This document shows positions 18,756-42,851 of a DNA stretch of 64,000 nt, one piece after another (within the stretch, counting starts at the first letter, position 1; every line of letters begins with the position of its first letter). Both the position numbers and the translations under genes were made by a program. A model generated the notes under the pieces. The model was given only the letters and a program-made list of their open reading frames with translations, had not been told where the DNA came from and searched no databases. Origin of the DNA: Dactylonectria macrodidyma (Eukaryota; Ascomycota; Sordariomycetes; Hypocreales; Nectriaceae); NCBI GenBank assembly GCA_020744425.1, contig JAGMUV010000002.1:558001-622000 (forward strand), given 5' to 3'.

Positions 18756-19508
18756 GGTGAAGAGTTAGGGATAGAGTTGTTGGATGAAGCGGTTGACGAG
18801 CTGTCGATGATTCGTATGAACATGCGTTTAACGACTGCTTGCAGTCACCACACCTAGACAATCTACAGTAACTGTTGCTCAATTGCAATAATGGAGATAG
18901 CCCCGGTTTTATTTCCGTGCGTCAATTGCAAGGCACAATCGACATTCCCACATTCGTACTAACTGACGATCCTCCGTTGACTCTTTTGCTAGCATCATCC
19001 CGGCCCACAGCTCGGGTTCCCGTGGAGTTAACGGAGATGGACTTCAAATCTCTGGATCTCTTTACCCCAGATGCGGGGTTTGCTCAGACAAGGATCTAGG
19101 GACATGGATTTGCGGGGCGAGTGGGTGCGGTTCGAACTTGGCCAAGAAGAGAGCATGAAGGATTCAAGACGGCATGGTGTTATCCTTTTCTCCTCATGCT
19201 GTGCTTGGATATTTGTGTCGTCTCTCGGTTCGCCCTTTCACGTCTGTGGGGATGGCAGACGGGAAGCTAATGAATCATTAGAGCTGGCTTTGGGAATGCC
19301 AGCTTGTTTGAGATAGTGGCATTTTGGCTTCGAACAAGCGGCACGGAAAATACGGGAACAGCGGGGGATTGCGAGTGATCTTAGCAGGTTGGCGATGATT
19401 CAAACACAGAGTCGACTTTGTCGCTCCGCTTGAGCTGTTGAGAGTTAATGACCAGAAGACTCCGGATCTTCTATTCATAGCCTCGCTGACATCAACACGG
19501 CTACCACA
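18756..19508. promoter_or_regulatory. Bidirectional promoter of MFS 1 and acyl-CoA synthetase 1
   Basis: 753 bases separate two divergent start codons. It holds no gene. Its clearest feature is the palindrome CTAATGAATCATTAG at 19267-19281. Confidence 0.7.
19267..19281. promoter_or_regulatory. Cluster palindrome, perfect 15-mer CTAATGA-A-TCATTAG
   Basis: A perfect inverted repeat around a single central base, about 230 bases before the synthetase 1 ATG and 510 bases before the MFS 1 ATG. It is the best copy of a motif shared by most cluster promoters (see findings). Binding by the cluster bZIP is inference. Confidence 0.7.
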
Positions 19509-21272
19509 ATGGCCAGCCAACGAATCTACCACTCGCGATACCCCATGCCCAATGTCCCTACTGACCAGAGCATCTCGCAATTCCTCCTCCATAGCGACCC
19601 AGACGACGCGCACCCGGACAGCGTCATCCTAGCCGACTTTGACAACCCCGAGCGAAGCGTCACCTACGGCCAACTGCGTCAGAATGCCGCTCGAGACGCC
19701 GCAGTTCTGCGACATGATCATGGGCTGCAAGAGACAGACGTCGTCTGTATATATGCGTATAACTCGGTGAGCTGGGCGTCGTTGGCGCACGGTGTCTTGT
19801 GGGCGGGCGGTTGCTTTTGGTGAGTGGCGATCAGTGTCAAAGGATAATCGTTGGCTGATATGAATGCAGTGGCATCAATCCATTAGCAACGAGTTTTGAG
19901 TTGGTTCACTACTTTGAGGTAGCCTCACCGAAGATTGTTGCTGTTGAGGGTAGTTTGGTGCAGAATGTGTTAGAGGCATTGAGGCATCTCACCTTTAAGC
20001 CTGCTGTGATGGTTATCGATGATAGCTCACCCGCCACGTCTCAGGGACACTCCGTGGTTAGTCCTCCACTGCAAGGTGCTGCTTCGCCATCTAACTCATC
20101 CACAGTACCCACGGGACTTTGAACGAACCAAAACATCTCCAATCAAGCCGATCGACCTCTCTCTTGGGGACAACAGAAACCAGTCAGCAGGCATGTGCTT
20201 CAGCTCGGGCACATCTGGCAAACCAAAGGGCGTCGTGTTTTCCCACCACAACCTCATCGCCCAGCTGCTGTCCATCCGCGCGACGAACCCGTTCTTGCAC
20301 AACGGCCACATGCGCGAGGTCTTCTTCCCATCTTTCTCCCACGTGTATGGCATCGTCTCCGCCGTGCTGCTGCCCGCTTGGGTTGGCTCGTATGTGCAAG
20401 CAATGAAGAGGTTCGAGTACTCTGCGTATCTCAAACGGTGTGCTGATATTAGAGCGACGGTCTTAAGGGTTGTTCCTGCCGTTGCTGTGAGGATGGTCAA
20501 GGACCCGGATGTGAAGGGGCTGGACTTGCGCTGCGTCCAGGCCGCCATGTGCTCGGGCGCACCGCTCTCAGACGATGTCGTCGGGGGATTGCAAAGCCTC
20601 CTCGCACCCAACGCAAGCGTTCTGAACGGCTTCGGTATGAGCGAGGCTACTATCACGCTCCTGCGGGAGATGCGAAGGGATAAGGGCGCGAGTGTCGGAC
20701 GGCCCGCTGCTGGGGTATCCATCCGCGTCGTCGACGATAACTACAACGACGTCGAGCCCGGCACCGATGGAGAATGCCTCATCAAGGGTCCAACCATGTT
20801 CATGGAGTATAAGGCAAACCCGGCGGAAACGCGAGAGGCCAAGAAGGATGGATGGTTGTGGTCCGGCGACATAGTGCGCGTCGACGATGACGGCTTCTTC
20901 TACCTAACGGGCCGCAAAAAGGAGCTCATCAAGTTCAAGGGCAATCAGATCGCCCCCGCAGAGCTCGAGGCCGTCTTGTTACTACACCCGCACGTCACCG
21001 ACGCCGGCGTGTGCGGCGTCGAGGACAGGCAGCTGGACACGGAGATACCTGTGGGCTTTGTTACGCTTGCGGCAGATGTTGCACTGGGGGAGCATGAAGA
21101 TATGCTAGAGGACGTGAGGGCGTTTGCGAATGCAAGGGTAGCTCCATACAAGGCGTTCCGGGAGCGGCTCTTCGACGTGGATGCGTTGCCTAAGAATACG
21201 TCTGGGAAGCTGCTGCGGCGACACCTGGTGGCGAAGGCGACGGAGCTACGTAGCCGACAACAGAAGCTATAG
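19509..21272 (+). CDS. Acyl-CoA synthetase 1 (4-coumarate-CoA-ligase-like, AMP-binding)
   Basis: Three exons (19509-19819, 19870-20056, 20106-21272) with introns of 50 and 49 bases encode 554 residues. The family activates a carboxylic acid as acyl-AMP and transfers it to CoA. Seen here are the AMP-binding loop SSGTSGKPKG, the SGDIVRVDDDGF and TGRKKELIKFKG core motifs, and the C-terminal lysine motif in KNTSGKLLRRHL. The protein ends RQQKL; QKL is a weak relative of the peroxisomal PTS1 tripeptide, so peroxisomal location is possible but not clear. It is divergent from MFS 1. A decayed copy of its 3' end lies 1.4 kb downstream (22536-22695). The substrate cannot be read; 4CL-like fungal enzymes take aryl, medium-chain or terpenoid acids. 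Confidence 0.9.
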
Positions 21273-21655
21273 AAGACGTAGTTAAGATTGTAGAGTGATG
21301 TGCTTTTGGTTGGAACAAGATGGAGCCGAGATAGAAGGATTCTATTGGGACCAATGCTGCATATCGGTTAGTGGCTTGTTGCTTACCTACACCCATTATT
21401 AGTGCCTGCACAGTAAAGTTCCCATTCACTGCAATCTTAGTTCAGGAGAGGAAGTTAGTTGTGGTGCGGTACAGTACGTATTCTAAGGAGATCCAGTGAT
21501 TAGCTAAGAATACTGTGACTGACTCCCTGTATAGAGCTAAAATTGCAGTGAATTACGCCAACAGGCCCCCATGCATCATTTCTTACATGGAATTGATAGC
21601 CTGATCTCAAGAGGATGCCGTAATCGGCTAAGACGCCTACACACGAGCCCTTCTA

Positions 21656-24528: not shown

Positions 24529-24556
24529 ATGGCCCCATCAATGTCCAGCAACATAA
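24503..24556 (+). promoter_or_regulatory. Short upstream ORF overlapping the bZIP start codon
   Basis: An ATG in good context (CCATGG) at 24503 opens a 17-codon frame that ends at TAA 24554-24556, past the main ATG at 24529 and in another frame. If transcribed, it would reduce translation of the regulator or force leaky scanning. Whether the transcript includes it is unknown. Confidence 0.45.
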
Positions 24557-25766
24557 GCCATGGCAATGAATCATCTCCATCTGCAGACCATGTTCAAGAT
24601 CACGCTCATGATTCATCCATACCGTTGTCAATGTCGTTGCGCGAGCATGAGTTGCAGCGGAAGCGTGCCAGGGACCGCAAGTCTCAGCAAGCCATGCGTG
24701 ATCGGAACAAGTGGACGATCCAGACGCTGAGCGACCAAGTTGCCTGCCTTTCTAGTGCTCTCGACGAGCGGGCTCGTGCTATAAGCCTATTGGAGACAAG
24801 ATTGGGTTTCCTAGAGACGGAGAATTCTCAATTGCGGACTCAGAATGCCGCCCTGCAGCTGAGTCTGATGGGCCGCGACGACCTCGGCGAAGACATTGGC
24901 ACCAGTCCTGGTGTTGTGAGCAATGCTAGCAGTATTCGCCCAGCGTTGTGGGAATTGCATCCCAAGAACACTCCGCCAAGCTGCCTGGCAGACCAGATTC
25001 TGCAAGGGTTTGCTGATAGCATCAGAACTGAAGGTGTTTTGACACCATCATCCCCTGGAGCAAGGTCGAAGAGGTTCCCGCTGCGGCCGAACCTGTGCAG
25101 TCTTCTGGACAAGAGTCACCACTCGGACGACGAGATTAGCAATGTTGTGGCAGATGTTCTGAGAACATACTGTGAGATCGAGGGACTGCCTAAACAGGTC
25201 GCCGTTTTCTACGTCATGGCGACGCTTCTCAAGGTAGGATTCACGCCTTCAAAATGCATCAGATGGATAGCAGCTTAGACGCAGCAGTGGATGGTGCTTC
25301 TTGATAAACAGAGCTGGGACCTCATGCCCGACTGGTTGCGACCTGTCCCTAGCCAGCTCACGACACCTCACTCGGCTTGGATAGACCGAATTCCCTGGTA
25401 AGCTCCGCTAATGACTCATGTTATCACATTCTCTCACCAATCCATAGGCCACGAGCTCGAGAGTATCTCATCAGTCACCCAGAGATTACGCTGGACGACT
25501 TTGCTACCCCGTACAGCTCGGGCTTCAAGCTAAACTGGCCCTACGACCCGGCGTCGGTCCTTCTGCCCGCCTCTGTTAACGGTAATGGGACGGCAGAAAT
25601 GACCATTAACCCCGTCTACGAGGAGCATATGCGTCAGATCCGTAATTGGACCGTGGGAGAGGCGTTTCGGAATACATTCCCAGAGCTGTCGCACGAAATC
25701 GACCTCGACTCTGGCCAGGGCTGTGTGACGACCCCAGCGACTGGCCCACTCCAACAGTCTCCTTGA
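24529..25766 (+). CDS. bZIP-like transcription factor with DUF3425 C-terminus, probable cluster regulator
   Basis: Three exons (24529-25233, 25288-25397, 25448-25766) encode 377 residues; introns are 54 and 50 bases. The basic region is at about residues 44-60 (RKRARDRKSQQAMRDR), followed by a leucine-rich coiled coil to about 110. The C-terminal half is the DUF3425 type, with PDWLRPVPSQL and WIDRIPWPRAREYL. In a canonical bZIP the pattern is NxxA/S...R; here the invariant Asn position reads Asp (the D in RARDRKS). I believe this substitution is common in this fungal subfamily. I infer it controls the surrounding catabolic genes because it is embedded among them and their promoters share a palindromic site. 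The ATG was taken at 24529; the frame is open upstream but has no earlier ATG. Confidence 0.85.
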
Positions 25767-25830
25767 TGACTCGACAAATGTCGAACCCCCTCAAAACGAG
25801 AGATTGGCACGCTGACTGCCGCATACCCGC

Positions 25831-25839
25831 TGAATCATT
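25831..25839 (+). promoter_or_regulatory. Cluster motif TGAATCATT upstream of AtuA-like 1
   Basis: Lies in the 310-base gap between the bZIP stop and the AtuA-like 1 ATG, about 240 bases before the ATG. One half-site is intact (TCATTG) and the other is degenerate (GCTGA). Confidence 0.6.
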
Positions 25840-26076: not shown

Positions 26077-28072
26077 ATGCTGTCAAACGAGACACAGGGT
26101 CGTCGGCCCATTCGAATCGGCGGCGCATCAGGAGGGTTTACAGACCGTGTGGCGGCAATATCTCGCCTCGCTAAAGACCCCAATGTCGATGCAATCGTGG
26201 GAGACTGGCTATCTGAAAATGTCATGACCGGATATGGTGCTGGCAAGGCTCGACAAGACCCTTACATCGCCACACTCCCTCTCGAGGAGCGTCGGCAAAC
26301 GGCCATGTATGCCAGCACTTTTCTCCAATGTTTTGAGCCAGCAATCCAGTTTTTAGCTGAGAATAAGACCAAACTTGCTGTCAATGCCGGTGCCAGCGAC
26401 ACCGAACTCCTTGCCAAGGTTGTCCGTGACATGGTCTCGAAAGCTGGTTACAGCTTGAAGGTGGCCTGGGTCGAGGGCGACGACGTGACTGGAGCATTCG
26501 AAACGATGGTTTCTGACGGCTATGTATTTACGAGCGTCACGGACGGCAAGACTTTAAGCGACTGGGGGCACAAGCCTATCTGCGCGCAGGCATATCTGGG
26601 CAGTCTTGGGATTGCAGAAGCACTCAGACACGGCGCGGATATCGTCATCTGCGGCCGGTATGTAACTACTGTCTACTCAAACGAGTACCATCATCTAGAT
26701 CATTCGCTAATAATTGCAGAGTATCAGATGCTGCTCCAACAATAGGCCTGGCTGCCTTCTGGCACGAGTGGAAAGCGGATCAATTTGATGAATTGGCCGG
26801 TGCGCTCATCGCGGGACACTTGATCGAGTGCTCTGCATTTGTGACTGGAGGCTATTACAGCCGCTTCAAGGACCTCATGAAGGCCAAGAGGCACCTAGGC
26901 CTCGGTTTTCCCATTGCCGAGGTTTTCGGTGACGGGCGGTGTAACATTACAAAGGAATCGGGCTCGAATGGCATCGTCAACACCGAGACTGTGACGTCGC
27001 AGTTGGTATATGAGATCTCGGGCCCATTGTACTTCAACTCAGACGTCGTTGCCGACTTGCGAAACATCCAAATGAAGCAACTTGGCGAGGACTGCGTTCA
27101 AGTATCCGGTGTAAAGGGACTCCCTCCACCCGACACAACGCGCATGGGCGTGACAGCTCATGGAGGCTATCAAGCAGAATGGCATTTCTACCTTGTCGGC
27201 CTAGACATTGAGGAAAAGTGCCAATGGATGGAGGAACAAGCCCGATATGCCATCGGCGAAGAGCTCATTCAGCAATTCACCATGCTGAAGTTCCACGTCC
27301 ATGGCAGCAGTCCCGCAGACCCTGTCAATCAGGAAATCGCAACTGTGGATTATCGAATCTTTGCTCAGGGCCCGAGAGCGGAGTTGTTTGACGGCAGTCT
27401 TCCCGATGGGTTCGCGAGAAAGCTCTACGAAACAGTTTTACAGTCATGCCCCGTAAGTTGGCCTCTCTTAGATGTGAATGCCATTGACTGACTTGTGATG
27501 AGGGTGTTTCTCGTCCCAATGACTTGCGACAATCGGCGCCCAAAAGCTACTGGGAATACTTCGTTTCGCTCATCCCTCAAAGCGCCTGCAACCATCGCGT
27601 ACATCTTTTGTTTGGAGACGAGTCGATTACCGCAATCCCAATGCCACCAGTGACAAAGAAATATGGCCCACAAGAGTCATACGATGCTTTTAACCCTCGG
27701 CCGCTCGAATCCTTTGGGCCTACCATGCAAGCTCCGCTGGGATGGGTCGCCCTCTCGCGGTCTGGTGACAAAGCATCAGATGCCAACGTCGGCTTATTCG
27801 TTTCCGACGATGAGCAGTGGGAATGGCTACGCGCATATCTCACCATTGATAGGGTCAAGCAGCTACTCGGGGCACATGAATACAGTGGGGGACGAATAGA
27901 TAGATTTGAGATGCCCAACATTCGAGCCGTGCACTTCTTGCTCAAAAATCACCTTGATCGGGGCTACAACTCTGGAAGCAAACTAGATACTCTGGCGAAG
28001 AATTTGGGGGAATATCTTAGAGCCAAACATGTCCCGATGCCGACCAAGTTCATCGAACACGGACACTTGTAG
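26077..28072 (+). CDS. AtuA-like protein 1 (DUF1446 family)
   Basis: Three exons (26077-26657, 26720-27452, 27503-28072) encode 627 residues. The N-terminal AtuA/DUF1446 domain is recognised by IRIGGASGGFTDR, TKLAVNAGASD, VAWVEGDDVT, GADIVICGRVSDAAPT and LIAGHLIECSAFVTGGYYS. The C-terminal ~100-150 residues form the AtuA-associated domain with LSRSGDKASDANVGLF and NIRAVHFLLKNHLDRG. AtuA is required for acyclic terpene (citronellol/geraniol) use in Pseudomonas, but its reaction is not established to my knowledge. It has the NAGASD version of the central motif, like AtuA-like 3 and unlike AtuA-like 2. No PTS1 (ends GHL). It is downstream of the bZIP gene, with one cluster motif in its promoter. 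Confidence 0.9.
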
Positions 28073-28342: not shown

Positions 28343-29188
28343 ATGGCCAACACACAATTAGCGGGCAAGGTCATTGCCATTACCGGGGCCGCCTCCGGGA
28401 TCGGTCTCGCCACAGCAAAGCTCCTAGCGAGCAGAGGGGCACAGATATCCATTGCCGATGTTTCGCAAGAAGGCCTTGAGAAGGCGCAAAAAGACATCGA
28501 GGCCGAATTCAAAGCCGACGTCTTTGCGTTTCCTCTCGACGTACGAAAGTACGACCAAGTCGCCGCCTGGATCGAACAGACAGTGAAGCGTTTCGGCCGT
28601 CTTGATGGCGCGGCAAACTTAGCTGGGGTTATCCCTAAGAGCATCGGCGGCAATCATGGAGCCATCGAGAACCAGGATCTGGAGGAGTGGGATTTCGTGT
28701 TTGGCGTCAACACGACCGGCTTGATGCACTGTATGAAGGCGCAGATCAAGAGCATCGCCGACAACGGCAGCATCGTTAATGCTAGCTCTATCGCCGGGCT
28801 CATCGGCCGGGAGAAGAACGGGGCCTACTCGGCAAGCAAGCACGCTGTATTGGGACTGACTCGCTCTGCGGCGAGGGACGTCGGAGGGCGAGGGATTCGA
28901 GTTAATGCCATTTGCCCGTATGCTTCCCCAGTATCTCCTATACATGGAAGCTGCTAACACTTACCTAGGGGACGCATCGACACGCCCATGTATAGGACTG
29001 CCGCACGGGTGGCGATTGAGGCAGGCGGTTCGACGGAGCAGTTTGACAGGGAGACTATGAACGACATTGCGCTAAAGAGAACTGGACGGCCCGAGGAAGT
29101 GGCTGCTCTGATTGCTTTTCTGCTCAGCGACGATGCTAGTTATGTCTGTGGAAATGCTGTCAGTGTCGATGGTGGATGGAATTGCTAG
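28343..29188 (+). CDS. Short-chain dehydrogenase/reductase (SDR)
   Basis: Two exons (28343-28917, 28969-29188) encode 264 residues; the intron has a TGCTAAC branch site and a TAG acceptor. Classical SDR features are TGAASGIG at 14-21 (cofactor loop), NLAG near 92, NASS at 146-149, and catalytic Tyr162 and Lys166 in YSASK. The C-terminus has the usual [16 protein letters not shown]. Asp at the end of beta-2 (ISIADV) suggests NAD preference. A plausible role is oxidation of a hydroxyacyl-CoA or alcohol intermediate; AtuB and AtuG of the bacterial pathway are also SDRs. It runs convergent to MFS 2. Confidence 0.92.
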
Positions 29189-31583: not shown

Positions 31584-32615
31584 CGTGGAAGGTTGCAATG
31601 CAGCTTGACGCTGACTGCAGGAACAGATTGGAGTAGTAATAAGAGATGGCAGATACTGCTCTGTGAATGTTGAAGATGGATATCGAACGGGCTCTCTTAT
31701 GATTCAGGGGATGATCGGCGCCTTATAGATGTTTAGGATGCCAGGAGTCAAAGTGAAGATGGAGGACTGAGACTTCAAAGTGACACGACTACTGCTCAAA
31801 CCAGCTCATTAATGACAAGATCAACTGATTCCATGCACAAAGTGTCACAGCAAAGTCCAGACAGCCTACCACCCAGGTAGTAAGGCCCTGCTCTTACCCC
31901 AGATCTACCCCGGAAAATGGCAGCCATGAACCAGGATTGACTGGCGGGGGAAGCGGAGGTGCAGTGGGGGGGAGCCAAGAACCGGTGGTTTGGTGCAGAG
32001 ATGGGCTCTAGTTTGTGCGTGAGGCTTGCGTATTCGCTTGTCTTGGGCGATGAATCATTAGGGGAGGTGTTGGTTCACTAGCCCTGTGAGGAAACCAGGA
32101 TCGTCACACGAGGGGGCGAGACTGAGCTCAGCTTCTAGCGGGCGCCGGAATGGTCGGGTAGGATATCTTCGGTGGTTTTTATCAGGCTTAGATTATCTTA
32201 GGTCGTGGGTGAACTGCTAGTCAGACCGCTGCTAATTGTTTGCTACCTGACACATTGGTCTTGGTGTTGGAGGTATCCCTAGCTGAGTGGAGATGAATCA
32301 TTATTTGAGAGATAGAGGTGAGCATTAGAGGCACTAGCATCATAGCTGAGTTGTGAGACATTCCAATAAATGATTCATTGGAAGTGTTCAGTCAACCTCC
32401 TATCTTGTTGTGATGAATAGCTCCGTCAAAGTGCTTATCTCCCCTAGGCGCCTTGGTCTTTCGATCATCTGCGGATAATGAACTGAGCTATAATGGGAAC
32501 ACCACAGGTTGAGGGAGAACTTGTCGTAGGCTGCGTCATGAGAAGTGTGAAACTTTTATTTACAGTATTTTCTCTATCTAATTACTTGCTTCAGACTGCC
32601 CGTAGATACCATCAA
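31584..32615. promoter_or_regulatory. Promoter interval of MFS 2 and 3' flank of enoyl-CoA hydratase 1
   Basis: About 1 kb without a gene. It carries three copies of the cluster motif (32051, 32294, 32369). The right end, next to the hydratase stop, would hold its 3' UTR. Confidence 0.65.
32051..32379. promoter_or_regulatory. Three cluster motifs upstream of MFS 2
   Basis: TGAATCATT at 32051-32059 (in GATGAATCATTAGG) and 32294-32302 (in GATGAATCATTATT), plus the full 11-mer AATGATTCATT at 32369-32379. This is the densest group of the motif in the window. Confidence 0.65.
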
Positions 32616-33458
32616 TCACAAGCGACTGCCCTTCCACCTAGGCTCCCTCTTCTCCGAGAACGCCTTTAGACCCTCGACTATGTTTTCGCCCTTCTGCAGC
32701 TCAGCAAACTCCTTTTCCAGTGTCCATTCAACAGCCCGTTCCACTGATGCCGTCTCCCATCCCTGACGTAGGCCTGCCCGCGTGCAGATGATGGCATCCG
32801 GGCTATTGCTGGCAATCATTCCCGCAAACTTGACCGCTTCCTGGACGACCTCGTCCTTGGGTACCACCTTGTTGACGATGCCCCATTGGAACATCTCCTG
32901 CGCAGAGACGTTTCGCCCAGTCAGGGCAAATTCGGATGCTCTTTGTAGGCCGATTGTGCGGATCAGTCGGGGGAGTGCTCCGCCGATAGCTGCGATGCCG
33001 CGTCGAACTTCGGGGAGGGCAAAGTATGCATCTTCGGCTGCGACGACGAGGTCGCAGTTGACGATGAACTCGCACCCGCCGCCCATAGCAAGCCCGTTGA
33101 CGGCCGCAATAACAGGCTTCTTGCCCAACCGCCGACTGAGCGGCTTGAACGCGGGAGCATTTCCCATGCGTTTGCTCGGATCCGCGTCGTCGGACATGGA
33201 ATTACTCCACTCCTTCAGGTCGGCACCGGCAGAGAATGCTCTCCCGGTACCGGTGATGATGGCGACGGAGAGCAGCGGCTCGTCGTCGAACCACTTCCAC
33301 ACTGAGTCCATCTCCCATTGTGCGGCTGTGGACATGGCATTAAGGTCCTTGGGCCTGTCCATCTGGATCAAGACGACGCGGGGGGCGGGAAAGGTGAGTT
33401 TGAGAAATGAAGGAGTTGCCGGTGGTGGCGTTTCCGTAGGGTATGAGTTTGGAGACAT
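32616..33458 (-). CDS. Enoyl-CoA hydratase/isomerase 1, PTS1 SRL
   Basis: A single exon of 280 residues. The crotonase fold shows the oxyanion-hole segments AFSAGADLKEW and NGLAMGGGCEF. Both catalytic-type glutamates are present (GGGCEF and LPEVRRGI). The C-terminus is KGSRL; SRL is a good peroxisomal targeting signal. The family hydrates 2-enoyl-CoAs or shifts double bonds; in the bacterial atu pathway a crotonase (AtuE) hydrates isohexenylglutaconyl-CoA. The frame is open upstream of 33458 but the ATG chosen is the first available. It is divergent from hydratase 2, with a palindrome between them. Confidence 0.93.
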   Translation of the reverse strand: MSPNSYPTETPPPATPSFLKLTFPAPRVVLIQMDRPKDLNAMSTAAQWEMDSVWKWFDDEPLLSVAIITGTGRAFSAGADLKEWSNSMSDDADPSKRMGNAPAFKPLSRRLGKKPVIAAVNGLAMGGGCEFIVNCDLVVAAEDAYFALPEVRRGIAAIGGALPRLIRTIGLQRASEFALTGRNVSAQEMFQWGIVNKVVPKDEVVQEAVKFAGMIASNSPDAIICTRAGLRQGWETASVERAVEWTLEKEFAELQKGENIVEGLKAFSEKREPRWKGSRL

Positions 33459-34153
33459 GTTGAACAAGCAGCTCAGGGTGGATGATGTGGTGAGGGTATC
33501 AAGAGAGACTGAGACGCAGATCGAAGGTGCGATGGTTGATGAATAAGAAACCCCGATTTCAGTCTAGAAAATGTACGTTATTCTTTGTAAATGCAGAAAG
33601 CCATTGCCGCCACTTTCCACGGTTGTTTGAGACGGTTCTACGACTAGGCATTTCCCTTTCTCGGGCTTCTTCTCCCTTGACCCTCAACCACTAACTAGAC
33701 TATTTTCCCCATGGACCTAAAGCTCCCAGCATCCGTATTCCTGGTCATCAGGATCCCCCTTCTTGCTTGGAACGGGACCCGGACACCGAGGCTTATCCCC
33801 ACAATGGATAGGCTCCCAAAGTGCGGGGAAGTCGGGCCAGGATAGCTGCTGGCACTAATGATTCATTGCAAGGGTCTCGTAACTCGAAAGTGTTACCGGT
33901 GGTTGGTCGAATCTTGACGATCAGTATTGTGGTGCGAGACCAAGATCTGGGGTGTATTATTCCCCTTTTGAGGTCCGGCAAACTCATCTCTGCCCGTCAA
34001 CAACCGAGGTGAAAAAGTATCGCGAGAAATGGGGGTTCGACCTTCAGGATCGAGGAGGATTCAAGAAAGCTGATATTGAGAGCACACAAGCTCTATCTCG
34101 CCAATCCCACGGTTTCAGTTACTTCCAACTACGCAATTGAATCCATTGCCAAC
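33459..34153. promoter_or_regulatory. Bidirectional promoter of the two enoyl-CoA hydratases
   Basis: A 695-base divergent gap holding CTAATGATTCATT at 33855-33867, about 290 bases before the hydratase 2 ATG and 400 before that of hydratase 1. No gene seen. Confidence 0.65.
33855..33867. promoter_or_regulatory. Cluster palindrome CTAATGATTCATT
   Basis: The full 11-mer AATGA-T-TCATT with CT on the left and GC on the right, the same extended form (CTAATGATTCATTGC) as at 39038. Confidence 0.7.
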
Positions 34154-35058
34154 ATGTCTACCCCGCGAACGAAGAACCCAGTCCCCTCGTGGCTCGAGAA
34201 CCCCTACCCGCACGTCCAACACAGCATCGTCAGCTTCCCCCGCAAGCACGTCCTCCAAGTGACGATTAACCGGCCAGAGTACCGCAACTGCCTGCCCGTA
34301 GAGGCGACCATCGAGCTCGGCGCGCTGTGGAAGTGGTACGACGCCGAACCTGAGCTGCGATGTGCCGTTTTCACTGGTGCCGGCGACAAGGCATTTTGCG
34401 CAGGCATGGACTTGAAACAGCGGCTTGACATTATCAACACCAACGATGTCGCTCATGAATACCCTCAGGGCGGGTTTGGCGGGATGACAAATAGGACGGG
34501 GAAGAAGCCTATTATCATTGCCTGCAATGGCCACGCACATGGTAAGACATGCTGGGTGCAGTCACATCTTGCAGCATAACTAATAACATCTCAGGTGGTG
34601 GCTTCGAAATCGTCCTCAACGCCGACGTCATCTTCGCTTCACCCAACGCAACATTCCGCCTCCCAGAAGTCCTCCGCGGCGTCTCAGCCCTCGCAGGCGC
34701 GCTCCCTAGATCTATGCTGCTCTTCGGCAACCATCGCACCATGGATCTTGTCCTAACCGGCCGAATACTTAGTGTTGAAGAGGCCGTGCAATGGGGTTTA
34801 GTCAAGGAGATCGTCCCCCAAGACAAGCTGCTCGAGAGGACTTTGGATTATGCCTCTGAGATTGCCAGTTTGAGTCCTGATAGTGTCATCATCTCGCGAT
34901 TGGGTGCGCGAGAAGTGTGGGAGACGGGCGTGAGTAGAGCGACGATGAGGGGACAGGAACTTTGGGCTGAAGCTATGCTGCGAAGCAAGAATGCGAGCGA
35001 GGGTCTGGCTGCGTATAGGGAAAAGAGGGATCCCAAATGGTTTCCGTCACATATCTAG
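34154..35058 (+). CDS. Enoyl-CoA hydratase/isomerase 2
   Basis: Two exons (34154-34541, 34595-35058) encode 283 residues. Crotonase features: FCAGMDLKQR for the first oxyanion segment, GHAHGGGFEIVLNADV across the splice, and LPEVLRGV, keeping both active-site glutamates. It differs strongly from hydratase 1, so it is not a recent duplicate. The C-terminus is FPSHI, which is not a standard PTS1, so the two hydratases may sit in different compartments. ATG 34154 is the first in frame (MSTPRTKN). Confidence 0.92.
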
Positions 35059-35344
35059 ACTATAAGAATACACATTCTAATTCACCTTTTATTTGCCCAG
35101 AGCTTCAGATGTGGCCTATTCTAGCTGTGTGATTCCGAGGACTTAATTGTCTGCACAGTTCTTAGAGCGCCATCCGCTAAGTAACAGAGGCTCCTCCACT
35201 AAAGTTTAGCGATCAAGTCAGCAGCTGACAGTGAGGCACTCTCATCCGCCATCTCCCTCCAAATTCGTCACAATCACTCTCTCGATACAAATTCATGGCT
35301 TGAACATATACTGGTAGATGGAATTTATATCTACACTTTGCCTA
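35059..35344. other. Convergent gap, hydratase 2 / MaoC hydratase
   Basis: 286 bases of 3' flanks. No gene and no cluster palindrome. Confidence 0.6.
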
Positions 35345-36428
35345 TTACAACTTGCTACCACTCTGAGTAATTTGAGCATAGCCATTAGTCAATGCCACTC
35401 GCCCGTCTCCCTTGACGATTGTCTCAAACAACACATCGTCTACGCCTCCGTTGGATCCAACTACCCACATTCTTGTCTCGAGCAAATCGCCAGGATATAC
35501 GACGCTCTTGAACCGCGCACCAAACTTCTTGAAGCGAGCAGGGTCAGAACCTCCGAGCTGCTGCAGCACGCCGTGGGCCGCAATGTTCCACGTTCCCAGA
35601 CCGTGCAAGATGCATCCCTTGAAGCCGGCGCGCTTCCCAAACTCGACATCGGCGTGCATGGGGTTGTAGTCGCCGCATAGTCGGTAGAGCAGGGCTGTTT
35701 CCGGTGTTGTTTGGAATACATGTACTGCATCTGGAGCCCGGGTGGGAAGCTTGGGCGAGGGCTTGGATGGACCGCGAGGGCCATTGTAGCCGCCTTGGCC
35801 GATGCCGAATGACATTGAGTTCATCTTAGCGTAGACAGTTCCAGTCTTGACATCCACAAGCTCCTGTTCAGATTCTAGAATCATTGCGCCACCTTATGCA
35901 AGACACAAGTCAGTCAAAACACTCACTAGCGAACAGGAGGGGTAGCTTCTCACCTTTGTCATAAACACCAATGACTTTGTTGTGGATCTCAAGATCTAAA
36001 CCCGCAGAGCTGGTGGGAATCGTCTTGAGAATCTCAATGCCTCTCTCGCCGTCAACCGAGTTCTGGGCGTCAAACGGCGGCGTCCCGGGGACTTCGCCAG
36101 AAATCATACGTGAGATGAAGTCAAATACATCCTGGTCTGTCTGCTTGAAAGCGAGGTTGATGGGGAACGTGGGAAAGGCGGCGAACTTGGGATGCAGTTC
36201 GTAGAGAAAGTGTCGCTCATCTTCTGCCTTGCTTCCAATGGCATTGGACTATTGTTCTTGTCAGTGACGGGACGGCGGTGGATAAGAGAATAGATTGTCA
36301 CTCACAAAGAGAAGGACATCTCGGCGGTTATAGCTGCACTTCAGCGGCGGATACTTGTACCCAGCGGCTTTGCGAAAGTCGACGTTGTCGTATCGCCCAG
36401 AGGCATTCTTTACGGGTCGGTCGCTCAT
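35345..36428 (-). CDS. Peroxisomal MaoC-like enoyl-CoA hydratase 2, PTS1 SKL
   Basis: Three exons on the minus strand (36428-36306, 36248-35954, 35892-35345) encode 321 residues. It is a double hot-dog protein: a less conserved N-terminal half with FPTFPINLAFKQ, and a C-terminal MaoC domain with the hydratase-2 signature LLYRLCGDYNPMHADVEFG, where the Asp and His of D-x-N-P-x-H are catalytic in the family. It ends GSKL, the canonical peroxisomal signal. Hydratase 2 makes (3R)-hydroxyacyl-CoA, the stereochemistry used by fungal peroxisomal multifunctional enzymes. It shares an upstream region with the 3' end of AtuA-like 2, and a cluster motif lies about 320 bases before its ATG. Confidence 0.92.
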
Positions 36429-36748: not shown

Positions 36749-36757
36749 TGAATCATT
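36749..36757 (+). promoter_or_regulatory. Cluster motif TGAATCATT upstream of the MaoC gene
   Basis: In the 377-base gap between the MaoC ATG (36428) and the end of AtuA-like 2. The left half-site is degenerate (ATTGA). The remainder of the gap (36429-36805) shows no gene. Confidence 0.55.
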
Positions 36758-36805: not shown

Positions 36806-38747
36806 TCATAACGACATCCGCGACGAGATTGCTCGTTGCTGTGCAGTCGTGCGACGCTGCTCTTCAGCTTGGACTAATGCTCCTGGCATCTCAACGATCC
36901 TCGCCCTCAAGAACTCTGAGATACTCTTCCCGAACCCGTCTAGAACACTACTACTACTGACACCGTCCTGCAAGATTCCCTTGATGACGAAGTGGATCGC
37001 GTTTAGATGCGGGAACTCGCAACGCTCGACCGAGAACTTTGGGTCCCAGTCGTCGGCGAGCAGTTTAATCAGTCTCGGTACTGTCAAGAATGCCTGCGCA
37101 AACGGGAATGCCTTGGGATCTCGCACCCAGAAGCCAACGTTGGCATTGCCACCCTTGTCGCCGCTGCGAGCAAAGAAGAGATCGCCAAGGGGACGCTTGA
37201 TCAACGATCCGCCATTCACGGGCAACGCATCCGATGACTTGGAGCTGACAATTGGAGGCAACTCAGAGACTGCCCTCATATCTTTAAAATCTGGCGGTGG
37301 AACAGCGTATTTCTCTCCCGATACGAAGTGAACCATCAGGTTGGGGAGCTTCTCCTGATGAATCAAAGCAGGGAAATACCTGACGAATGGCTTCGGCTCC
37401 ATCGTTCGCCAGTCCATTCCCAAATGCAACCCGCAGTAGCCCTGCATGCCGTTGTAGAAAATCGCCCTCCTAAACTGGGTGAAGGCTTCCTTGCTCTCGC
37501 TTTGGGCGAAGAACCTGAATTGCACGGTGCATGATTTCTGCGATCTGGGGTCGGTGGGCGGAGACCCGTACTTTTCGATGCTGAAGGTTGTGAAATCGGC
37601 CAGGTTGATTTGCCCCAGGACTTGATCTCTCATCAGGTTGAACTTGAAGTCAATGTCGGACTCGATTCCAGCAGCATAAGATGAGATCTCAGCTTGAAAG
37701 CCACCCAGAGCACAGATGGAGACCTTTGCAGTGTCGGGTGCAGCGAGTCCGACGATACCTGACAGCTTCACTCGGTCCTTGCCAACCTGCTCAAGACAGG
37801 CGCCATCAATACGCGCCACAACATCGGGATTGAGATATCTCGGTCCTTGGATCTCATAGAGAAGCTGTCCCTTGCAAGTATCGACCGTCACAGCCCCATT
37901 GGAGCCCTCGGGCTTGGTGATGACGCATGTCCCATCGGCCGCAATCTCTGCAATCGGATACCCAACATGATGCAATTGGGCGACTTCGCGAGCGCCGCAG
38001 TAGTTGCCACCAGTTACATAGGCGCCGCATTCTATAAGATGGCCGGCCATGAGACTGCCGGCGAGCTGGTTATAGTCGGTGGCTTTCCAGCCCCAATACC
38101 AGGATGCGAGCGCCGTGACTGGGGATGCGTCGCAGCATCGGCCGCAGATGACAATATCTGCTCCCTTTTCCAGGGCCTCAACTATCCCTCTTTGTCCGGT
38201 GTATATGTTTGCTGCCAAGATTTCTTTGCCGTTGGCCTCGAATGTTCGCCCGCTCTGATCCAGATGCTGCGGGCGCCCGAATCGGTTCGTCTTGACTTGC
38301 TCCGTGATATTGTCGCCCTCAACCCAAGCAACCTTTATATGCCTAATTCCCAAACCTCGAAAGTAGGAATCGACTTTTTCGGCCAAACCCTTGGGGTTGA
38401 GGGCGCCTCCATCATGTACAACCTTGATGTTGTTGTTGGCCACTGCGCGAGCTCCGTCTCCGTTGTTGTAAGCCAATTGTTCGAGGAAGTTGGGCTCATA
38501 TCCTAGATCGGGCCTCGATTGAAGTTCAATGGCTTTCCAGGCAATGTTGAATTCAGCGAGATAATCGGCGGTGATAGCGTCTACAGCGCCGGATGATGCT
38601 AAGCGGAAAACCTGGTCAAGTCTTCACTGATCAGTCAGGCTGTCTTACAGAGCGATGATTGAGCACCTACCCATCGCCAATGGCACCAGATGCGTTGCCA
38701 ATCCGTATGGGTCGGCGTTTATTCTCTTTCGATTCATTCGGTGGCAT
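36806..38747 (-). CDS. AtuA-like protein 2 (DUF1446 family, DGGALNP type)
   Basis: Two exons on the minus strand (38747-38671, 38621-36806) encode 630 residues; the intron acceptor used (GTGAAG) restores IGDGLDQVFRLAS. Domain motifs: PIRIGNASGAIGD, YEPNFLEQLAYNNGD, VVHDGGALNPKGLAEKV, KVAWVEGDNIT, GADIVICGRCCDASP and LMAGHLIECGAYVTGGNY, then the C-terminal domain with FARSGDKGGNANVGFWV and HLNAIHFVIKGIL. The central motif is DGGALNP, close to bacterial AtuA, where paralogues 1 and 3 have NAGASD. This marks a distinct subfamily rather than a third tandem copy. The C-terminus (SRMSL) is not a clear PTS1. It is divergent from synthetase 2. Confidence 0.9.
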
Positions 38748-39328
38748 TGTGGGATATCGACTGGGTGCTTCTGGTGAACAGTGTCGATGCCCTTCGAGAT
38801 GGCTCAACTGAAAGACTTCCAACGCAACAATGCCCGCTCACTAAGCCTCACTCTGACCAACGGCATTGCATGTTGTTCTTTTTCCTCGGCAAACAATATT
38901 ATCGACAAGCCGCGAAGCATCCGGAATATCCGCATGAGTTCTCCTCATTCTCCATTGCGTCGCCATCCCAACCCCGCCTCCCATGCAGCTCGCTATCGCG
39001 AATTGAGTCAAACTCAGGATGCGGAGGTGGAGCAGCCCTAATGATTCATTGCATCACCGGTTCTTCCCCAGACGACACCCCACAAACTAATGCAACCGAT
39101 CTAGGCCTGTTCCCCATGGGATTTGGACGGATGCTGCCTCACAAGGTTCTCCGTCTAGGCTCAAGACCGGGGTGGCGGAAGACATCTCCCAGACTCTCGG
39201 TAAATGGTGGTGAAGTTTTCCAAGACTCCAGGCGCTCCGAGTTTTGGGTGTCATAGGTAGCCTGGGCTTCATCTCAAAGCGTCGCTCACAACTTGTCAGT
39301 TCAGGCATGCGAATTCGCTGCTCAATCC
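38748..39328. promoter_or_regulatory. Bidirectional promoter of AtuA-like 2 and synthetase 2
   Basis: A 581-base divergent gap. The palindrome at 39038-39050 lies almost exactly midway, 279-299 bases from each start codon. No gene seen. Confidence 0.7.
39038..39050. promoter_or_regulatory. Cluster palindrome CTAATGATTCATT
   Basis: Full 11-mer in the same extended form as at 33855. Its central position in a divergent promoter fits a shared operator for both genes. Confidence 0.7.
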
Positions 39329-41017
39329 ATGCCCACCATGACCGTGTACAACCTAGATCGCACGATCGACATCCCCAAAGACCAGAATCTCACTCAACTT
39401 CTTCACTCCTCAGCCTACGACTTACCAGAGTCGCACCTCATCGCGGCCGACAGCCTCACAAACCGGAGCATCACGCTAGGCGAATTGCGAGATCGAGCGG
39501 GTCGAATTGCCAATGGGCTCAAACAAAAACTCAACCCCGAAGACCAAGCAAGATGGGCCATTGTCCTGCCCAACAGCGTCGAATTCTTAGAGGTTTTCCA
39601 CTCTATACTATGGACTGGGGGCGTCGTCTGTCCAATCAATTTTGCCTTAAAGGCAACTGAAATTGGTCATGGGATTGCAGTATGCCGTCCCCAATTTATC
39701 GTTGCGTACGGCAAAATCATTCCTGCAATCCATGAGGCAATTGGGGTTGCAGCAGTAGAGCTGAAGAAGGAGGGCGTGCAATGGCAGCCCCCAACAGTTC
39801 TGTCAATTATAACGAAGACCAAATCTCATTCTCATATTCCCGACGACTTCCTAAGTACAGAGCGATTGGACATACCCCATTGGTCTGATACGTCGAAGCG
39901 GCTTGCGTCTATTCACTTGTCCTCCGGAACGACAGGGAAACCCAAAGGTGTTCGTCTTACGCATTACAACTTTGTGGCAAACGTACATCAGCTCGTTTCC
40001 CACGACAGATCCCAGTTTCACCCCGCCTCAAAGACTGTCGCATTCACTCCATGGGCTCATATAGCCATGACAACAATGCCCATGTTTCTCGGTCCCTACA
40101 CTGGCATGTTTCATCACGCAATGCCGTCGTACAATCTCGAGGCCTTTGCAAAACTGGTTGGCTCTAACCAAGCGACATCATTCCAAGGAGTTCCCTCCGT
40201 GGTTCTATCACTGGCAAAGTCTGATGTAACTGCGCGCTATGACTTCTCCCGAGCGGCGATCCTCAATGTCGGCGGAACGCCACTCAAGAAGGGTGACATG
40301 GATAAGCTCATGTCCCGTGCTCCTTGGAAGACGATTCAGGCGTACGGAATGACTGAAGCCGCAGCGTACGTTGCGTATCAGTCTCTTGGCGAAACCCTTC
40401 CAGAGGGTTCAACTGGACGGCTTCTACCCGGCATTGAAGCCCGACTAGTCAATGAGGGGACGGTGAACGATGCACCTTTGGGTGGCCCTGGCGAGCTATG
40501 GCTGCGAGGGCCAAATATCACCAGCGGTTATGCCTTCAATGATGAGGCAAACAATCAAGGGTTCCCTCAGGACAACTGGTACAACACTGGAGATGTGTGT
40601 ACGATTGACAAGCAGGGGCGTCTCTCAATCGTGGGGCGGACCAAAGACCTGATCAAGTACAAGGGCTTCCAAGTTTCTCCTTCTGAGTTGGAATCCTACA
40701 TCAATTCCCATCCAGATGTCGCTGAGGGTGGAGTTGGAGCCCTGTGGGACGAGAGTCAGTTGACTGAGGTGCCTACAGCTTGGGTAGTGCTGAAACCACA
40801 CCTTCTAGAAAAGAGCGCTTCTGAGAGAAAAAGTTCCCTAAAAAGTGTTCAATCATGGATAGACGAGCAGGTGAGCGGATACAAAAAGCTTCGGGGCGGA
40901 GTGTGGGAAGTCGACAAGCTGCCGAGGAACGCGACGGGTAAGATCTTGAGGAAAGAATTAGTCAAGATGAGGGAAGGAGTATGCTCGATAGACAGGAGGC
41001 TTCCCGCAAAACTGTAG
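39329..41017 (+). CDS. Acyl-CoA synthetase 2 (AMP-binding), PTS1 AKL
   Basis: A single exon of 562 residues. Adenylate-forming motifs: LSSGTTGKPKGVRLTH, AYGMTEAAAYV, NTGDVCTIDKQGRL, VGRTKDLIKYKGFQVSPSELE and the C-terminal catalytic lysine region RNATGKILRKEL. It ends PAKL; AKL is a standard peroxisomal signal, so this synthetase probably activates its acid in peroxisomes. It is intronless, whereas synthetase 1 has two introns, and the two are well diverged. The start is the first ATG (MPTMTV); a second Met follows three codons later. Confidence 0.93.
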   Translation: MPTMTVYNLDRTIDIPKDQNLTQLLHSSAYDLPESHLIAADSLTNRSITLGELRDRAGRIANGLKQKLNPEDQARWAIVLPNSVEFLEVFHSILWTGGVVCPINFALKATEIGHGIAVCRPQFIVAYGKIIPAIHEAIGVAAVELKKEGVQWQPPTVLSIITKTKSHSHIPDDFLSTERLDIPHWSDTSKRLASIHLSSGTTGKPKGVRLTHYNFVANVHQLVSHDRSQFHPASKTVAFTPWAHIAMTTMPMFLGPYTGMFHHAMPSYNLEAFAKLVGSNQATSFQGVPSVVLSLAKSDVTARYDFSRAAILNVGGTPLKKGDMDKLMSRAPWKTIQAYGMTEAAAYVAYQSLGETLPEGSTGRLLPGIEARLVNEGTVNDAPLGGPGELWLRGPNITSGYAFNDEANNQGFPQDNWYNTGDVCTIDKQGRLSIVGRTKDLIKYKGFQVSPSELESYINSHPDVAEGGVGALWDESQLTEVPTAWVVLKPHLLEKSASERKSSLKSVQSWIDEQVSGYKKLRGGVWEVDKLPRNATGKILRKELVKMREGVCSIDRRLPAKL

Positions 41018-41416
41018 ACGAGTAGTAGAATCATTAAATCAAGTAGCGCTCAACTTCATTCCATCAATGACCCTTGCGCCTGGTTCTGGTGAAATTGTGC
41101 TGGTGTAGGGTAGCGCTCACCTCACCACATGCGCCTGTGACAAGTAACGAATGTGATTCACGACGCCTGGGCAAAATAATGCACTGATGTGGCGTATGAT
41201 CCATAAGATACGCATACGAATTGTAATCAATAATTGGTCCCAGTAAATTCTCGATCTCATCGCTATGGCTCGGATAAAGTGATGCGAGCTGAGGGGTAGG
41301 CGCGTGCTAGCCGTGGCGCTCACCCGCACTAGCCACACCATTTAAATGAAGCGAAGTCAGTCATTAACTTCTAACGCCTCTTTGAGCATTGCTCTCATTT
41401 TGTAACTTTATTCAAA
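41018..41416. promoter_or_regulatory. Gap upstream of the ABM-domain gene
   Basis: About 400 bases between same-strand genes. It holds a one-mismatch form of the cluster motif (AGAATCATTA near 41027). No gene seen. Confidence 0.5.
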
Positions 41417-42227
41417 ATGGCTGAACGAATCTTGGTTGTTGCTCGAATGCTTACGGTGGATGCCCGCCGTCGCAATGAGGTGAATTAAATGACACGAAAG
41501 GCATGACCCCAGCTAATCCCTTCCGAAGCTTCTCGATAGACTCCAAGTTCTAGCAGATATAGCCTTGGAAAGTGAACCGGGAACGCTCAAATATGCTGCA
41601 CTTATCCTGCGAGAAGATGACGCCAGGTCGGTGTATGCAATTGAAGAGTAGGTCAAACAACCTGTTGCGGTTCACACGCTTAAGAATTGCAGATATGCCG
41701 ACAAAGCGGCTTTCGACCTGCACATGTCCAGCTCTGGCGTTACCGAAATAAACAAATGGTTCGGCGACGAGAACGTGCTAGATCCCAACGATAAACCGGA
41801 TGTTCACATATTGGAATATCTTCCCGGATTTCGCTTCGACCGGAAGGAGGTACTCACGCACGACGACCCTCATATTGCCTTCGCAGAGCTTGACTACGTC
41901 CCTGGTGGGCTTGATACATCAGTGCCCTACTGGAAAGCGGTGGTGGAAACAGGACGCAATGGCGAGCCTGGGACCTTGGTGTATGGGTAAGCAGTCTCTC
42001 CAAAAGCCATGTGGTGGCACCTGGCTGACATGCTCAGCATCTCCAAAGACACGCAGAAAGAGAATAGACTGTGCGCGTTTGAGGTATACGAAAGTGCCAA
42101 TTACCTGAAAGACGTCCATGTCCCAAGCAAAGCCATTCAAGACAGCATCAATAACACGAAGCATTTGCGAACGGGTTTAAGGCATCACTTTTTACAGAAG
42201 AAAGGCGGCTTCCTGCATAGAGAATAG
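41417..42227 (+). CDS. Tandem antibiotic-biosynthesis-monooxygenase (ABM) domain protein
   Basis: Four exons (41417-41479, 41529-41647, 41693-41986, 42038-42227) encode 221 residues with consistent splice phases. The N-terminal half looks like an ABM dimeric alpha/beta-barrel domain: ERILVVARMLTVDARRRNE, then LQVLADIALESEPGTLKYA and YADKAAFDLHMSS. The second half repeats a similar strand pattern (IAFAELDYVPG..WKAVVETGRNGEPGTLVYG, then CAFEVYESANYLKDVHV). Members are cofactor-free oxygenases or simple ligand-binding/stress proteins. Its role in the pathway is open. It sits between synthetase 2 and AtuA-like 3. Confidence 0.75.
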
Positions 42228-42851
42228 ATGACGAGGTATTATTTAGCAAACCAGTAGGGTTTATTTGAATCCATAGAATTAAAACCTTTACTCATTTCTG
42301 CCGATGACCATCTCTTCATATTCGTGATTGCTTCCACTCTCTGATGCCCACCCCGGTAGACTGATCAGACCGCGGCACAACGCCCTCGACTATACCCCAC
42401 ATAAGACAAGCGATACCCCAAGCTCGGCATCTGGCTAGATGATACCCCCGTAAGAGATCCAATGGTCCACTAACATAGTAAGCCATCTCCATGTGGGCCT
42501 TGTGGTTTCGTCTGATGGTCAGGAGGATGGTGAAGAGGGGCATAAGTAGATGGCGGGGTCAGCGGGTGCTGAATCATTAGTGCATCCCCAAGGAGTGGCG
42601 AGAACCTGTGAGGAATCGAATTCCGTGACGGATGAATCACACTCTCCTCTCCTTGGTTGATGATAGTGAGGGGTTGTTGGAGAATGCGGCGTTTGTTGAC
42701 AAATCTTTCTAATATCCGAGACGGTGGGTGAAGTGATCCGGTCGTGATATATATCTGTGCTGGTGCCTTCCACGATGCCATTTGGGCACTCTCCATTCAC
42801 TGCATTCACATTGAATTGACAAAGAGGTTGCTTCCTTTAGATTTGGTCACC
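42228..42851. promoter_or_regulatory. Gap upstream of AtuA-like 3
   Basis: About 620 bases, no gene. It holds the cluster motif at 42570 and a related TGAATCAC at about 42633. Confidence 0.6.
42570..42578 (+). promoter_or_regulatory. Cluster motif TGAATCATT upstream of AtuA-like 3
   Basis: In context GCTGAATCATTAGTGC, about 280 bases before the ATG. The right half-site TCATTAG is complete. Confidence 0.6.

What the first reader, a model, noticed from the sequence alone, without database searches (positions are those of the whole stretch)
19267..42578. Shared palindrome AATGA-W-TCATT in nearly all cluster promoters: candidate cluster operator
The 9-mer TGAATCATT (either strand) starts at 4976, 19271, 25831, 32051, 32294, 32369(-), 33857(-), 36749, 39040(-) and 42570. 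About 0.5 copies would be expected in 64 kb at equal base frequencies. Nine of the ten are inside the cluster, all in non-coding gaps upstream of cluster genes and none in the convergent gaps (29189-29680, 35059-35344). Most lie 230-320 bases before an ATG, and 39038 sits midway in a divergent promoter. Four copies are full 11-base palindromes; 19267-19281 is a perfect 15-mer.
Basis: partly seen in the sequence, partly recalled or inferred. Interest (0 to 1): 0.9.

Follow-up and report, generated by a model that had tools for sequence, protein, structure and literature searches.

The report
Shared switch-site in fungal catabolic cluster
A short palindromic DNA word is repeated in front of most genes of a fungal break-down gene cluster, far more densely than expected from the rest of the genome, so it is probably the docking site of one regulator, most likely the unusual leucine-zipper protein encoded in the same cluster.

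Summary
All ten TGAATCATT copies lie where stated. The genome holds 487 copies in 77.28 Mb, so 0.14 are expected in the 23.3 kb that hold nine (about 62-fold, p 6.5e-14). TGAATCATTAG has 21 genome copies, 5 of them here. In the fully listed TGAATCATTA set (70 places) no two outside this cluster lie within 25 kb. All nine sites fall in promoter-bearing gaps, none in a convergent gap. Flanks share little beyond about 5 bp on either side, so it is not a repeat element.

Best reading: a pathway-specific activator site for a CoA-ligase/AtuA/enoyl-CoA-hydratase catabolic cluster, probably read by the cluster's own bZIP. New here: that bZIP has Asp at the bZIP-invariant Asn, as do 114 of 120 listed homologues; the other six are N-terminally short models. 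In many other fungi it is linked to the same enzymes, though not in all.

Not shown: binding, expression, or the site in other species (no other fungal DNA was reachable). The bZIP and SDR promoters lack the 9-mer. The binder is inferred.

The parts
19267..19281 (.). site 1, CTAATGAATCATTAG, 15-bp odd palindrome; its 9-mer is 229 bp before CCL1 and 515 bp before MFS1
25831..25839 (+). site 2, TGAATCATT, 237 bp before AtuA-1
32051..32059 (+). site 3, gATGAATCATTAGGGG, 467 bp before MFS2
32294..32302 (+). site 4, TGAATCATT, 710 bp before MFS2
32369..32379 (.). site 5, AATGATTCATT palindrome, 785 bp before MFS2
33857..33867 (.). site 6, AATGATTCATT palindrome in the divergent ECH1/ECH2 promoter (398 and 288 bp)
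36749..36757 (+). site 7, TGAATCATT, 320 bp before the MaoC/MFE2-hydratase gene
39040..39050 (.). site 8, AATGATTCATT palindrome midway in the divergent AtuA-2/CCL2 promoter (292 and 280 bp)
42570..42578 (+). site 9, TGAATCATTAGTG, 273 bp before AtuA-3
24566..24616 (.). two further ATGAWTCAT 9-mers (24566 and 24608) inside the 5' end of the bZIP coding frame; possible downstream or autoregulatory sites, unproven
24529..25767 (+). cluster bZIP, 3 exons: KRARDRKSQQAMRDR basic region (Asp at the bZIP Asn position), long leucine zipper, C-terminal DUF3425 (PF11905)
16841..18755 (-). MFS1, TRI12-type transporter
19509..21272 (+). CCL1, acyl-CoA ligase (PF00501)
26077..28072 (+). AtuA-1 (PF07287)
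28343..29189 (+). SDR dehydrogenase; its promoter lacks the 9-mer
29681..31583 (-). MFS2, TRI12-type transporter
32616..33458 (-). ECH1, enoyl-CoA hydratase family; nearest solved structure by sequence is SidH mevalonyl-CoA hydratase 7oeq (E 1.3e-81)
34154..35058 (+). ECH2, enoyl-CoA hydratase family
35345..36428 (-). MaoC / MFE-2-type hydratase
36806..38747 (-). AtuA-2 (PF07287 + PF23544)
39329..41017 (+). CCL2, acyl-CoA ligase
41417..42230 (+). g13, small gene without a Pfam match on the one exon tested; promoter has a bare TGATTCA at 41154
42852..45085 (+). AtuA-3 (PF07287 + PF23544)

Best explanation
The palindrome (core ATGA-W-TCAT, fuller form ATGAATCATTAG) is an upstream activating site shared by the promoters of a CoA-dependent catabolic cluster in a Dactylonectria-like fungus. 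One dedicated dimeric regulator binds it and switches the genes on together when the substrate is present; divergent gene pairs share one site. The regulator is most likely the cluster's own bZIP-DUF3425 protein, whose Asp-type basic region and leucine zipper suit an odd palindrome with directly abutting half-sites. Shown: enrichment, placement, lack of a second dense locus in the sets that could be listed in full, zipper architecture (predicted on the closest homologue), linkage of bZIP and enzymes in many other fungi. Inferred: binding, activation rather than repression, ligand control through DUF3425, and the substrate class (branched or isoprenoid-like acids).
For: Nine copies in 23.3 kb against 0.14 expected from the genome itself. 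Of all genome copies, 6 of 70 TGAATCATTA, 5 of 21 TGAATCATTAG and 4 of 8 ATGAATCATTAG lie here; no other pair of TGAATCATTA within 25 kb genome-wide. 9 of 9 in promoter-bearing gaps. Looser core TGAWTCA: 16 in the cluster, 13 of them in promoter-bearing gaps (p 3.9e-7). W-centred ATGAWTCAT is enriched here (8 against 0.22). The core is of the AP-1/bZIP type (recalled), and the cluster encodes a bZIP; its 94% identical D. estremocensis homologue P0001 is predicted with one 83-residue helix through basic region and zipper. It has no close paralogue in the genome. The bZIP lies 4 to 9 locus tags from AtuA-2 in eight named genomes and shares a contig length with a listed AtuA-2 or ECH1 homologue in 31 of 120 hits, one coincidence on a 1.2-kb contig dropped. 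Of the 20 AtuA loci fetched (of 30 matches), the 16 outside this cluster have no TGAATCATT within their 1.5-kb flanks.
Against: No binding or expression data. The bZIP and SDR promoters lack the 9-mer. Asp replaces the Asn that reads the half-site in known bZIPs; an Asn-to-Ser change in Zta moves recognition to TCA(C/G)TGA (PMC13228511, passages), so a TGA half-site is not assured. Another DUF3425 bZIP (A7370 of Curvularia lunata; its basic region was not seen) binds ACGGCTGAC (PMC13113314, passages). In seven named strains the listed bZIP and AtuA-2 hits lie on different contigs: Neonectria magnoliae, N. ditissima, Trichothecium roseum and Xylariaceae spp. FL1651, FL1272, FL1019 and FL0255. 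Conservation of the site in other species is untested. W-centre preference over C/G-centre is not significant by itself: 8 to 1 here against 665 to 324 genome-wide. The word was chosen after looking at the window.
Confidence: 0.6

Rival explanations
1. The site is a real shared operator, but another factor reads it: a general bZIP (GCN4/CPC1 or Yap/Atf type) or a factor encoded elsewhere; the cluster bZIP reads another motif or acts as a heterodimer partner.
For: The ATGA-N-TCAT core is the classical GCN4/AP-1 shape (recalled). The cluster bZIP carries Asp at the specificity Asn. A DUF3425 bZIP elsewhere binds an unrelated motif. The genome gives 76 PF00170 matches at E 1, many of them weak or fragments.
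Against: The classical C/G-centred ATGASTCAT is not clearly enriched here (1 copy; 324 genome-wide). Yap-type TTA[CG]TAA and CRE TGACGTCA are absent from the cluster. No other enriched word family emerges in the cluster's gaps except a decayed repeat. A general factor might be expected to give more dense loci; none was seen in the fully listed TGAATCATTA set.
Confidence: 0.26
2. A regulator of another class reads the element, for example one encoded beside the cluster (a Fungal_trans_2 domain piece at about 45802-46934), or the site serves repression rather than activation.
For: A PF11951 domain lies next to AtuA-3. Site position alone does not tell activation from repression.
Against: PF11951 proteins usually pair with Zn2Cys6 domains that read CGG words (recalled); no such word was among the top enriched words. 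The gene looks fragmented by eye and shows no zinc cluster.
Confidence: 0.09
3. Chance or a sequence-composition artefact, or copies of a small repeat.
For: Only nine sites; the word was picked after looking at the window.
Against: Genome-wide background and correction for all such stretches still give 2.2e-10. Flank columns carry little information beyond about 5 bp on either side. Placement is confined to promoter-bearing gaps.
Confidence: 0.03

Closest known systems
Pathway-specific bZIP and its sites in fungal gene clusters, e.g. OTAbZIP of the ochratoxin A cluster (PMC7913050, passages including part of the abstract)
   Same: A bZIP gene inside the cluster; a shared motif proposed in the cluster's non-coding regions; there deletion lowers the cluster genes.
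   Different: OTAbZIP has the canonical N-x7-R and serves a biosynthetic toxin cluster; here the basic region is D-x7-R and the genes look catabolic.
GCN4/AP-1 site ATGA(C/G)TCAT (recalled)
   Same: Same half-sites and same odd palindrome.
   Different: The centre here is A/T, and the extended word ATGAATCATTAG is favoured; C/G-centred sites are not clearly enriched in the cluster.
bZIPs with the invariant Asn replaced: oomycete classes (PMC4046829, passages), F. graminearum Asn-to-Ile (PMC9028111, passages), engineered Zta N182S (PMC13228511, passages)
   Same: Substitution at the same position; altered specificity is reported for Zta N182S and suggested for the oomycete classes.
   Different: Here Asp, in every homologue whose basic region is present in the list, and often linked to one pathway. 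The passages read name Cys, Arg, Val 'or other amino acids', Ile and Ser; Asp is not named.
A7370, DUF3425 bZIP of Curvularia lunata (PMC13113314, passages)
   Same: bZIP with a DUF3425 domain that controls a gene cluster.
   Different: Reported site ACGGCTGAC; its basic region was not compared here.
Bacterial atu (acyclic terpene utilisation) clusters (recalled)
   Same: AtuA family proteins with CoA ligase, hydratase and dehydrogenase neighbours (the bacterial gene set is recalled).
   Different: Three AtuA paralogues, MFE2/MaoC and TRI12 transporters; no carboxylase among the 30 exons scanned with Pfam; a bZIP regulator.

Membership tests
pathway-specific cis element of a fungal gene cluster | enriched in the cluster's promoters over the genome background | tested here: met
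   9 against 0.14 expected; 9 of 9 in promoter-bearing gaps
pathway-specific cis element of a fungal gene cluster | conserved in orthologous clusters | not testable with these tools
   no fungal DNA other than this genome was reachable; one viral-contig scan with AtuA-2 found nothing
pathway-specific cis element of a fungal gene cluster | bound by the cluster regulator and needed for expression | not testable with these tools
   needs EMSA/DAP-seq and reporter
canonical bZIP (N-x7-R-x9-L) | invariant Asn in the basic region | tested here: not met
   Asp in the window protein and in 114 of 120 listed homologues, Asn in 0; the other 6 are models that begin after this position. The pattern is N-x7-R/K in 18 of 30 fetched PF00170 loci of this genome, and none of the 30 shows Asp there by eye
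canonical bZIP (N-x7-R-x9-L) | R-x9-L spacing and leucine zipper on one long helix | tested here: met
   D46, R54 and L64 are invariant columns of the 50-sequence alignment, numbered on P0001; helix 31-113 predicted for P0001, the D. estremocensis homologue
canonical bZIP (N-x7-R-x9-L) | Pfam bZIP_1 above cut-off | tested here: not met
   17.6 bits against 27.6; gene not among the 76 PF00170 matches of its own genome at E 1
DUF3425 bZIP regulators | PF11905 above cut-off C-terminal to the zipper | tested here: met
   37.6 bits against 27.1
GCN4/AP-1 site | C or G at the centre | tested here: not met
   ATGAWTCAT 8, ATGASTCAT 1 in the cluster
bacterial-type acyclic terpene utilisation cluster | geranyl-CoA carboxylase beside AtuA (recalled) | tested here: inconclusive
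   no carboxylase domain in the 30 exons scanned, but not every exon of the window was scanned

The most novel reading that the evidence does not exclude
A bZIP subfamily widespread in Pezizomycotina, with Asp fixed at the otherwise invariant DNA-reading Asn and easily overlooked because it scores below the Pfam bZIP cut-off (PF00170 is precomputed for only 4 of 120 homologues), is the dedicated switch of a conserved AtuA/CoA catabolic cluster. It reads an A/T-centred palindrome ATGA-W-TCAT(TAG) that GCN4/AP-1-type factors read poorly: a naturally respecified, insulated bZIP and operator pair.
Probability: 0.33. Interest if true: 0.7.

Novelty: new variant of a known kind. Interest (0 to 1): 0.52.

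Why it matters
It gives a concrete, cheaply testable regulator-site pair for a recurring fungal gene cluster with AtuA proteins, whose reaction is to my knowledge unknown. It also points to a natural bZIP family in which the key specificity residue is Asp, a direct test of how bZIPs change their DNA code. Scanning promoters for the site would help to delimit the pathway's genes in other fungi.

Tried and rejected
Second regulon loci: other tight groups that I could see were read by eye (no Pfam) and hold frames that look unrelated to this pathway: C6 near 800.5 kb, C3 near 1.105 Mb, C56 near 2.31 Mb, C1 near 3.34 Mb. Of the four ATGAATCATTAG loci outside the cluster, three have such frames and one (L034) has no frame of 110 aa or more. 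The C1 triple of ATGAWTCAT in 5.2 kb is the tightest other group seen, but that listing covers only part of C1. Groups seen on C4 and elsewhere on C1 were not read.

The TGAATCATT, TGAATCATTG, ATGAWTCAT and ATGASTCAT lists were cut at 100 rows; TGAATCATTA, TGAATCATTAG, ATGAATCATTAG and AATGAWTCATT were listed whole.

Paralogous AtuA loci as a proxy for orthologous clusters: no 9-mer in the 1.5-kb flanks of the 16 loci outside the cluster, of 20 fetched from 30 matches. No close bZIP paralogue: one other match, 30% identical over the C-terminal part. A viral-contig scan with AtuA-2 found nothing.

Back-translation hint: 18 of 112 bZIP homologues have an N-terminal peptide that could encode ATGAWTCAT, against 3.1 expected from shuffles. 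The homologues are related and Ser-rich, so this is not used as evidence.

Papers: Suckow 1994 on GCN4 Asn replacements is not held. In the rows listed by searches I saw no paper on this cluster, this site or an Asp-type fungal bZIP; one search listed 20 of 462 papers and 10 of 22,619, so those two are weak. Read as passages only: PMC13228511, PMC4046829, PMC9223689 (which says that all F. fujikuroi bZIPs found have N-x7-R), PMC7913050, PMC5371717, PMC13113314, PMC9028111, PMC5595782, PMC12148953. The Grosmannia limonene papers were seen as a listing only.

Full report
Observation. TGAATCATT occurs ten times in the window at the stated places, AATGAWTCATT four times, and 19267-19281 is a perfect 15-bp odd palindrome. 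Window shuffles give 0.47 copies, with none of 100 shuffles reaching ten. The better background is the genome itself. The window is G000:C12:558001-622000 of a 77.28-Mb assembly, which holds 487 copies, so 0.14 are expected in the 23.3 kb that hold nine (Poisson 6.5e-14; 2.2e-10 over all such stretches). Extended words are more extreme: TGAATCATTA 70 in the genome, 6 here; TGAATCATTAG 21 and 5; ATGAATCATTAG 8 and 4; AATGAWTCATT 38 and 4. In the complete list of 70 TGAATCATTA sites, no two outside this cluster lie within 25 kb. A promoter-only background was not made.

Shape. Aligned on the 9-mer, the nine cluster sites share little beyond about 5 bp on either side. The usual right flank is A-G-N-G (five of nine), the usual left base is A (six of nine). 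This looks like a protein site, not a repeat. The looser core TGAWTCA occurs 16 times in 18756-45085, 13 times in promoter-bearing gaps (p 3.9e-7). A/T-centred ATGAWTCAT is enriched (8 against 0.22 expected); C/G-centred ATGASTCAT occurs once (324 genome-wide). The 8 to 1 ratio by itself does not differ clearly from the genome's 665 to 324.

Placement. Gene models were drawn by eye from open frames, GT-AG introns and Pfam. All nine sites are in gaps that hold at least one promoter, none in the three convergent gaps. Served genes: MFS1/CCL1 (shared), AtuA-1, MFS2 (three sites), ECH1/ECH2 (shared), MaoC, AtuA-2/CCL2 (shared), AtuA-3. Six sites lie 229-320 bp from a start codon; the three before MFS2 lie 467-785 bp away. 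Two more ATGAWTCAT words sit in the first 30 codons of the bZIP frame (24566, 24608).

Cluster. Two acyl-CoA ligases, three AtuA proteins (PF07287), two enoyl-CoA hydratase-family proteins, an MFE2/MaoC hydratase, an SDR and two TRI12-type transporters. ECH1 is closest among solved structures, by sequence, to SidH, mevalonyl-CoA hydratase (7oeq, E 1.3e-81). I infer CoA-dependent break-down of a branched, perhaps isoprenoid-like acid; no call shows the substrate. The nearest named relatives are from Dactylonectria estremocensis: 94% for the bZIP and AtuA-2, 99% for ECH1.

Candidate regulator. The bZIP at 24529-25767 has three exons, a DUF3425 domain (PF11905, 37.6 bits) and a weak bZIP_1 match (17.6 bits, under the 27.6 cut-off). 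It is not among the 76 PF00170 matches of its own genome at E 1. The basic region KRARDRKSQQAMRDR lines up by eye without gaps with the Yap-type region of L057 (QNRAAQRAFRER), placing Asp where bZIPs have Asn. Of 120 listed homologues, 114 show RARDR and none RARNR; the other six are models that begin after this position. In a 50-sequence alignment that Asp, the later Arg and the first zipper Leu are invariant. Of 30 fetched PF00170 loci of this genome, 18 match the N-x7-R/K pattern and none of the 30 shows Asp there by eye (several are fragments or begin at an intron). AlphaFold2 gives the D. estremocensis homologue P0001 one helix for residues 31-113 (mean pLDDT of the model 83.7).

Linkage in other fungi. 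By locus tag the bZIP and AtuA-2 homologues are 4 to 9 tags apart in eight named genomes: FZEAL_1604/1610, Fc.00g106450/106380 (counting tags in tens), NLU13_2522/2513, ACHAQA_006216/006221, E0L32_003422/003417, JX266_010196/010192, LTR10_022296/022300, SBRCBS47491_003879/003875. In six of these an ECH1 homologue lies between the two. By equal contig length, 32 of 120 bZIP hits share a contig with a listed AtuA-2 or ECH1 hit; one, on a 1,204-base contig, I dropped as coincidence, leaving 31. On multi-megabase contigs this alone shows only the same chromosome. Both enzyme lists were cut at 120 rows, so the count is a lower bound. Against: in seven named strains the listed bZIP and AtuA-2 hits are on different contigs (Neonectria magnoliae, N. 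ditissima, Trichothecium roseum, and Xylariaceae spp. FL1651, FL1272, FL1019 and FL0255). Contig breaks or paralogues may explain some of these; in N. ditissima, N. magnoliae and T. roseum AtuA-2 and ECH1 are themselves neighbours by tag while the bZIP is elsewhere.

How it works, most likely. The bZIP dimer sits on the odd palindrome, 230-320 bp upstream of most of the enzymes, and activates them together. The absence of the 9-mer from the bZIP's own promoter suggests that the protein is present beforehand and is controlled by a signal, perhaps a CoA intermediate through DUF3425 (inference). The Asp may explain why the centre is A/T: it could hold the neighbouring Arg away from a central guanine (inference from recalled GCN4 structures; not tested). 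A caution comes from Zta N182S, where changing the same Asn moved the half-site from TGA to TCA, and from a DUF3425 bZIP that binds ACGGCTGAC. The binder is therefore a hypothesis.

Verdict. A genuine, strongly localised shared promoter element. The operator reading is likely; assignment to the bZIP is likely but unproven; conservation of the site is the test to do first.

Noticed in passing
window 21273-23248: The gap between CCL1 and the CMD-like gene holds many degenerate copies of a GCTAAAATTGCAGTGCA-like word and, by eye, a second copy of the 3' end of CCL1 (about 22540-22640), as of a partial duplication with a decayed repeat.
   Followed up: no
window 45802-46934: Fungal_trans_2 (PF11951) piece beside AtuA-3 with no zinc cluster visible by eye; looks like a broken or partial regulator gene.
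   Followed up: no
G000 loci L038-L046, L049-L051 and others: Many near-identical Atf-like bZIP frames (RRILERNRIAATKCRLRK) on different contigs, and related pieces with stops: an expanded or mobile-captured bZIP family.
   Followed up: no
L064 (G000:C34:3302539-3302676): A bZIP with Ile at the invariant Asn (TQIRLAQRAYRNRKD); one F. graminearum bZIP is reported with Ile there too.
   Followed up: no
P0220, P0231, P0239: Predicted fusions of AtuA with the MFE2/MaoC hydratase (Neoarthrinium, Colletotrichum) and with a CoA ligase (Cudoniella), which hint at neighbouring steps of one pathway or at merged gene models.
   Followed up: no
window 24566-24616: Two ATGAWTCAT words 42 bp apart in the Ser-rich 5' coding end of the bZIP; 18 of 112 homologues have a peptide near the N-terminus that could encode the word.
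   Followed up: partly
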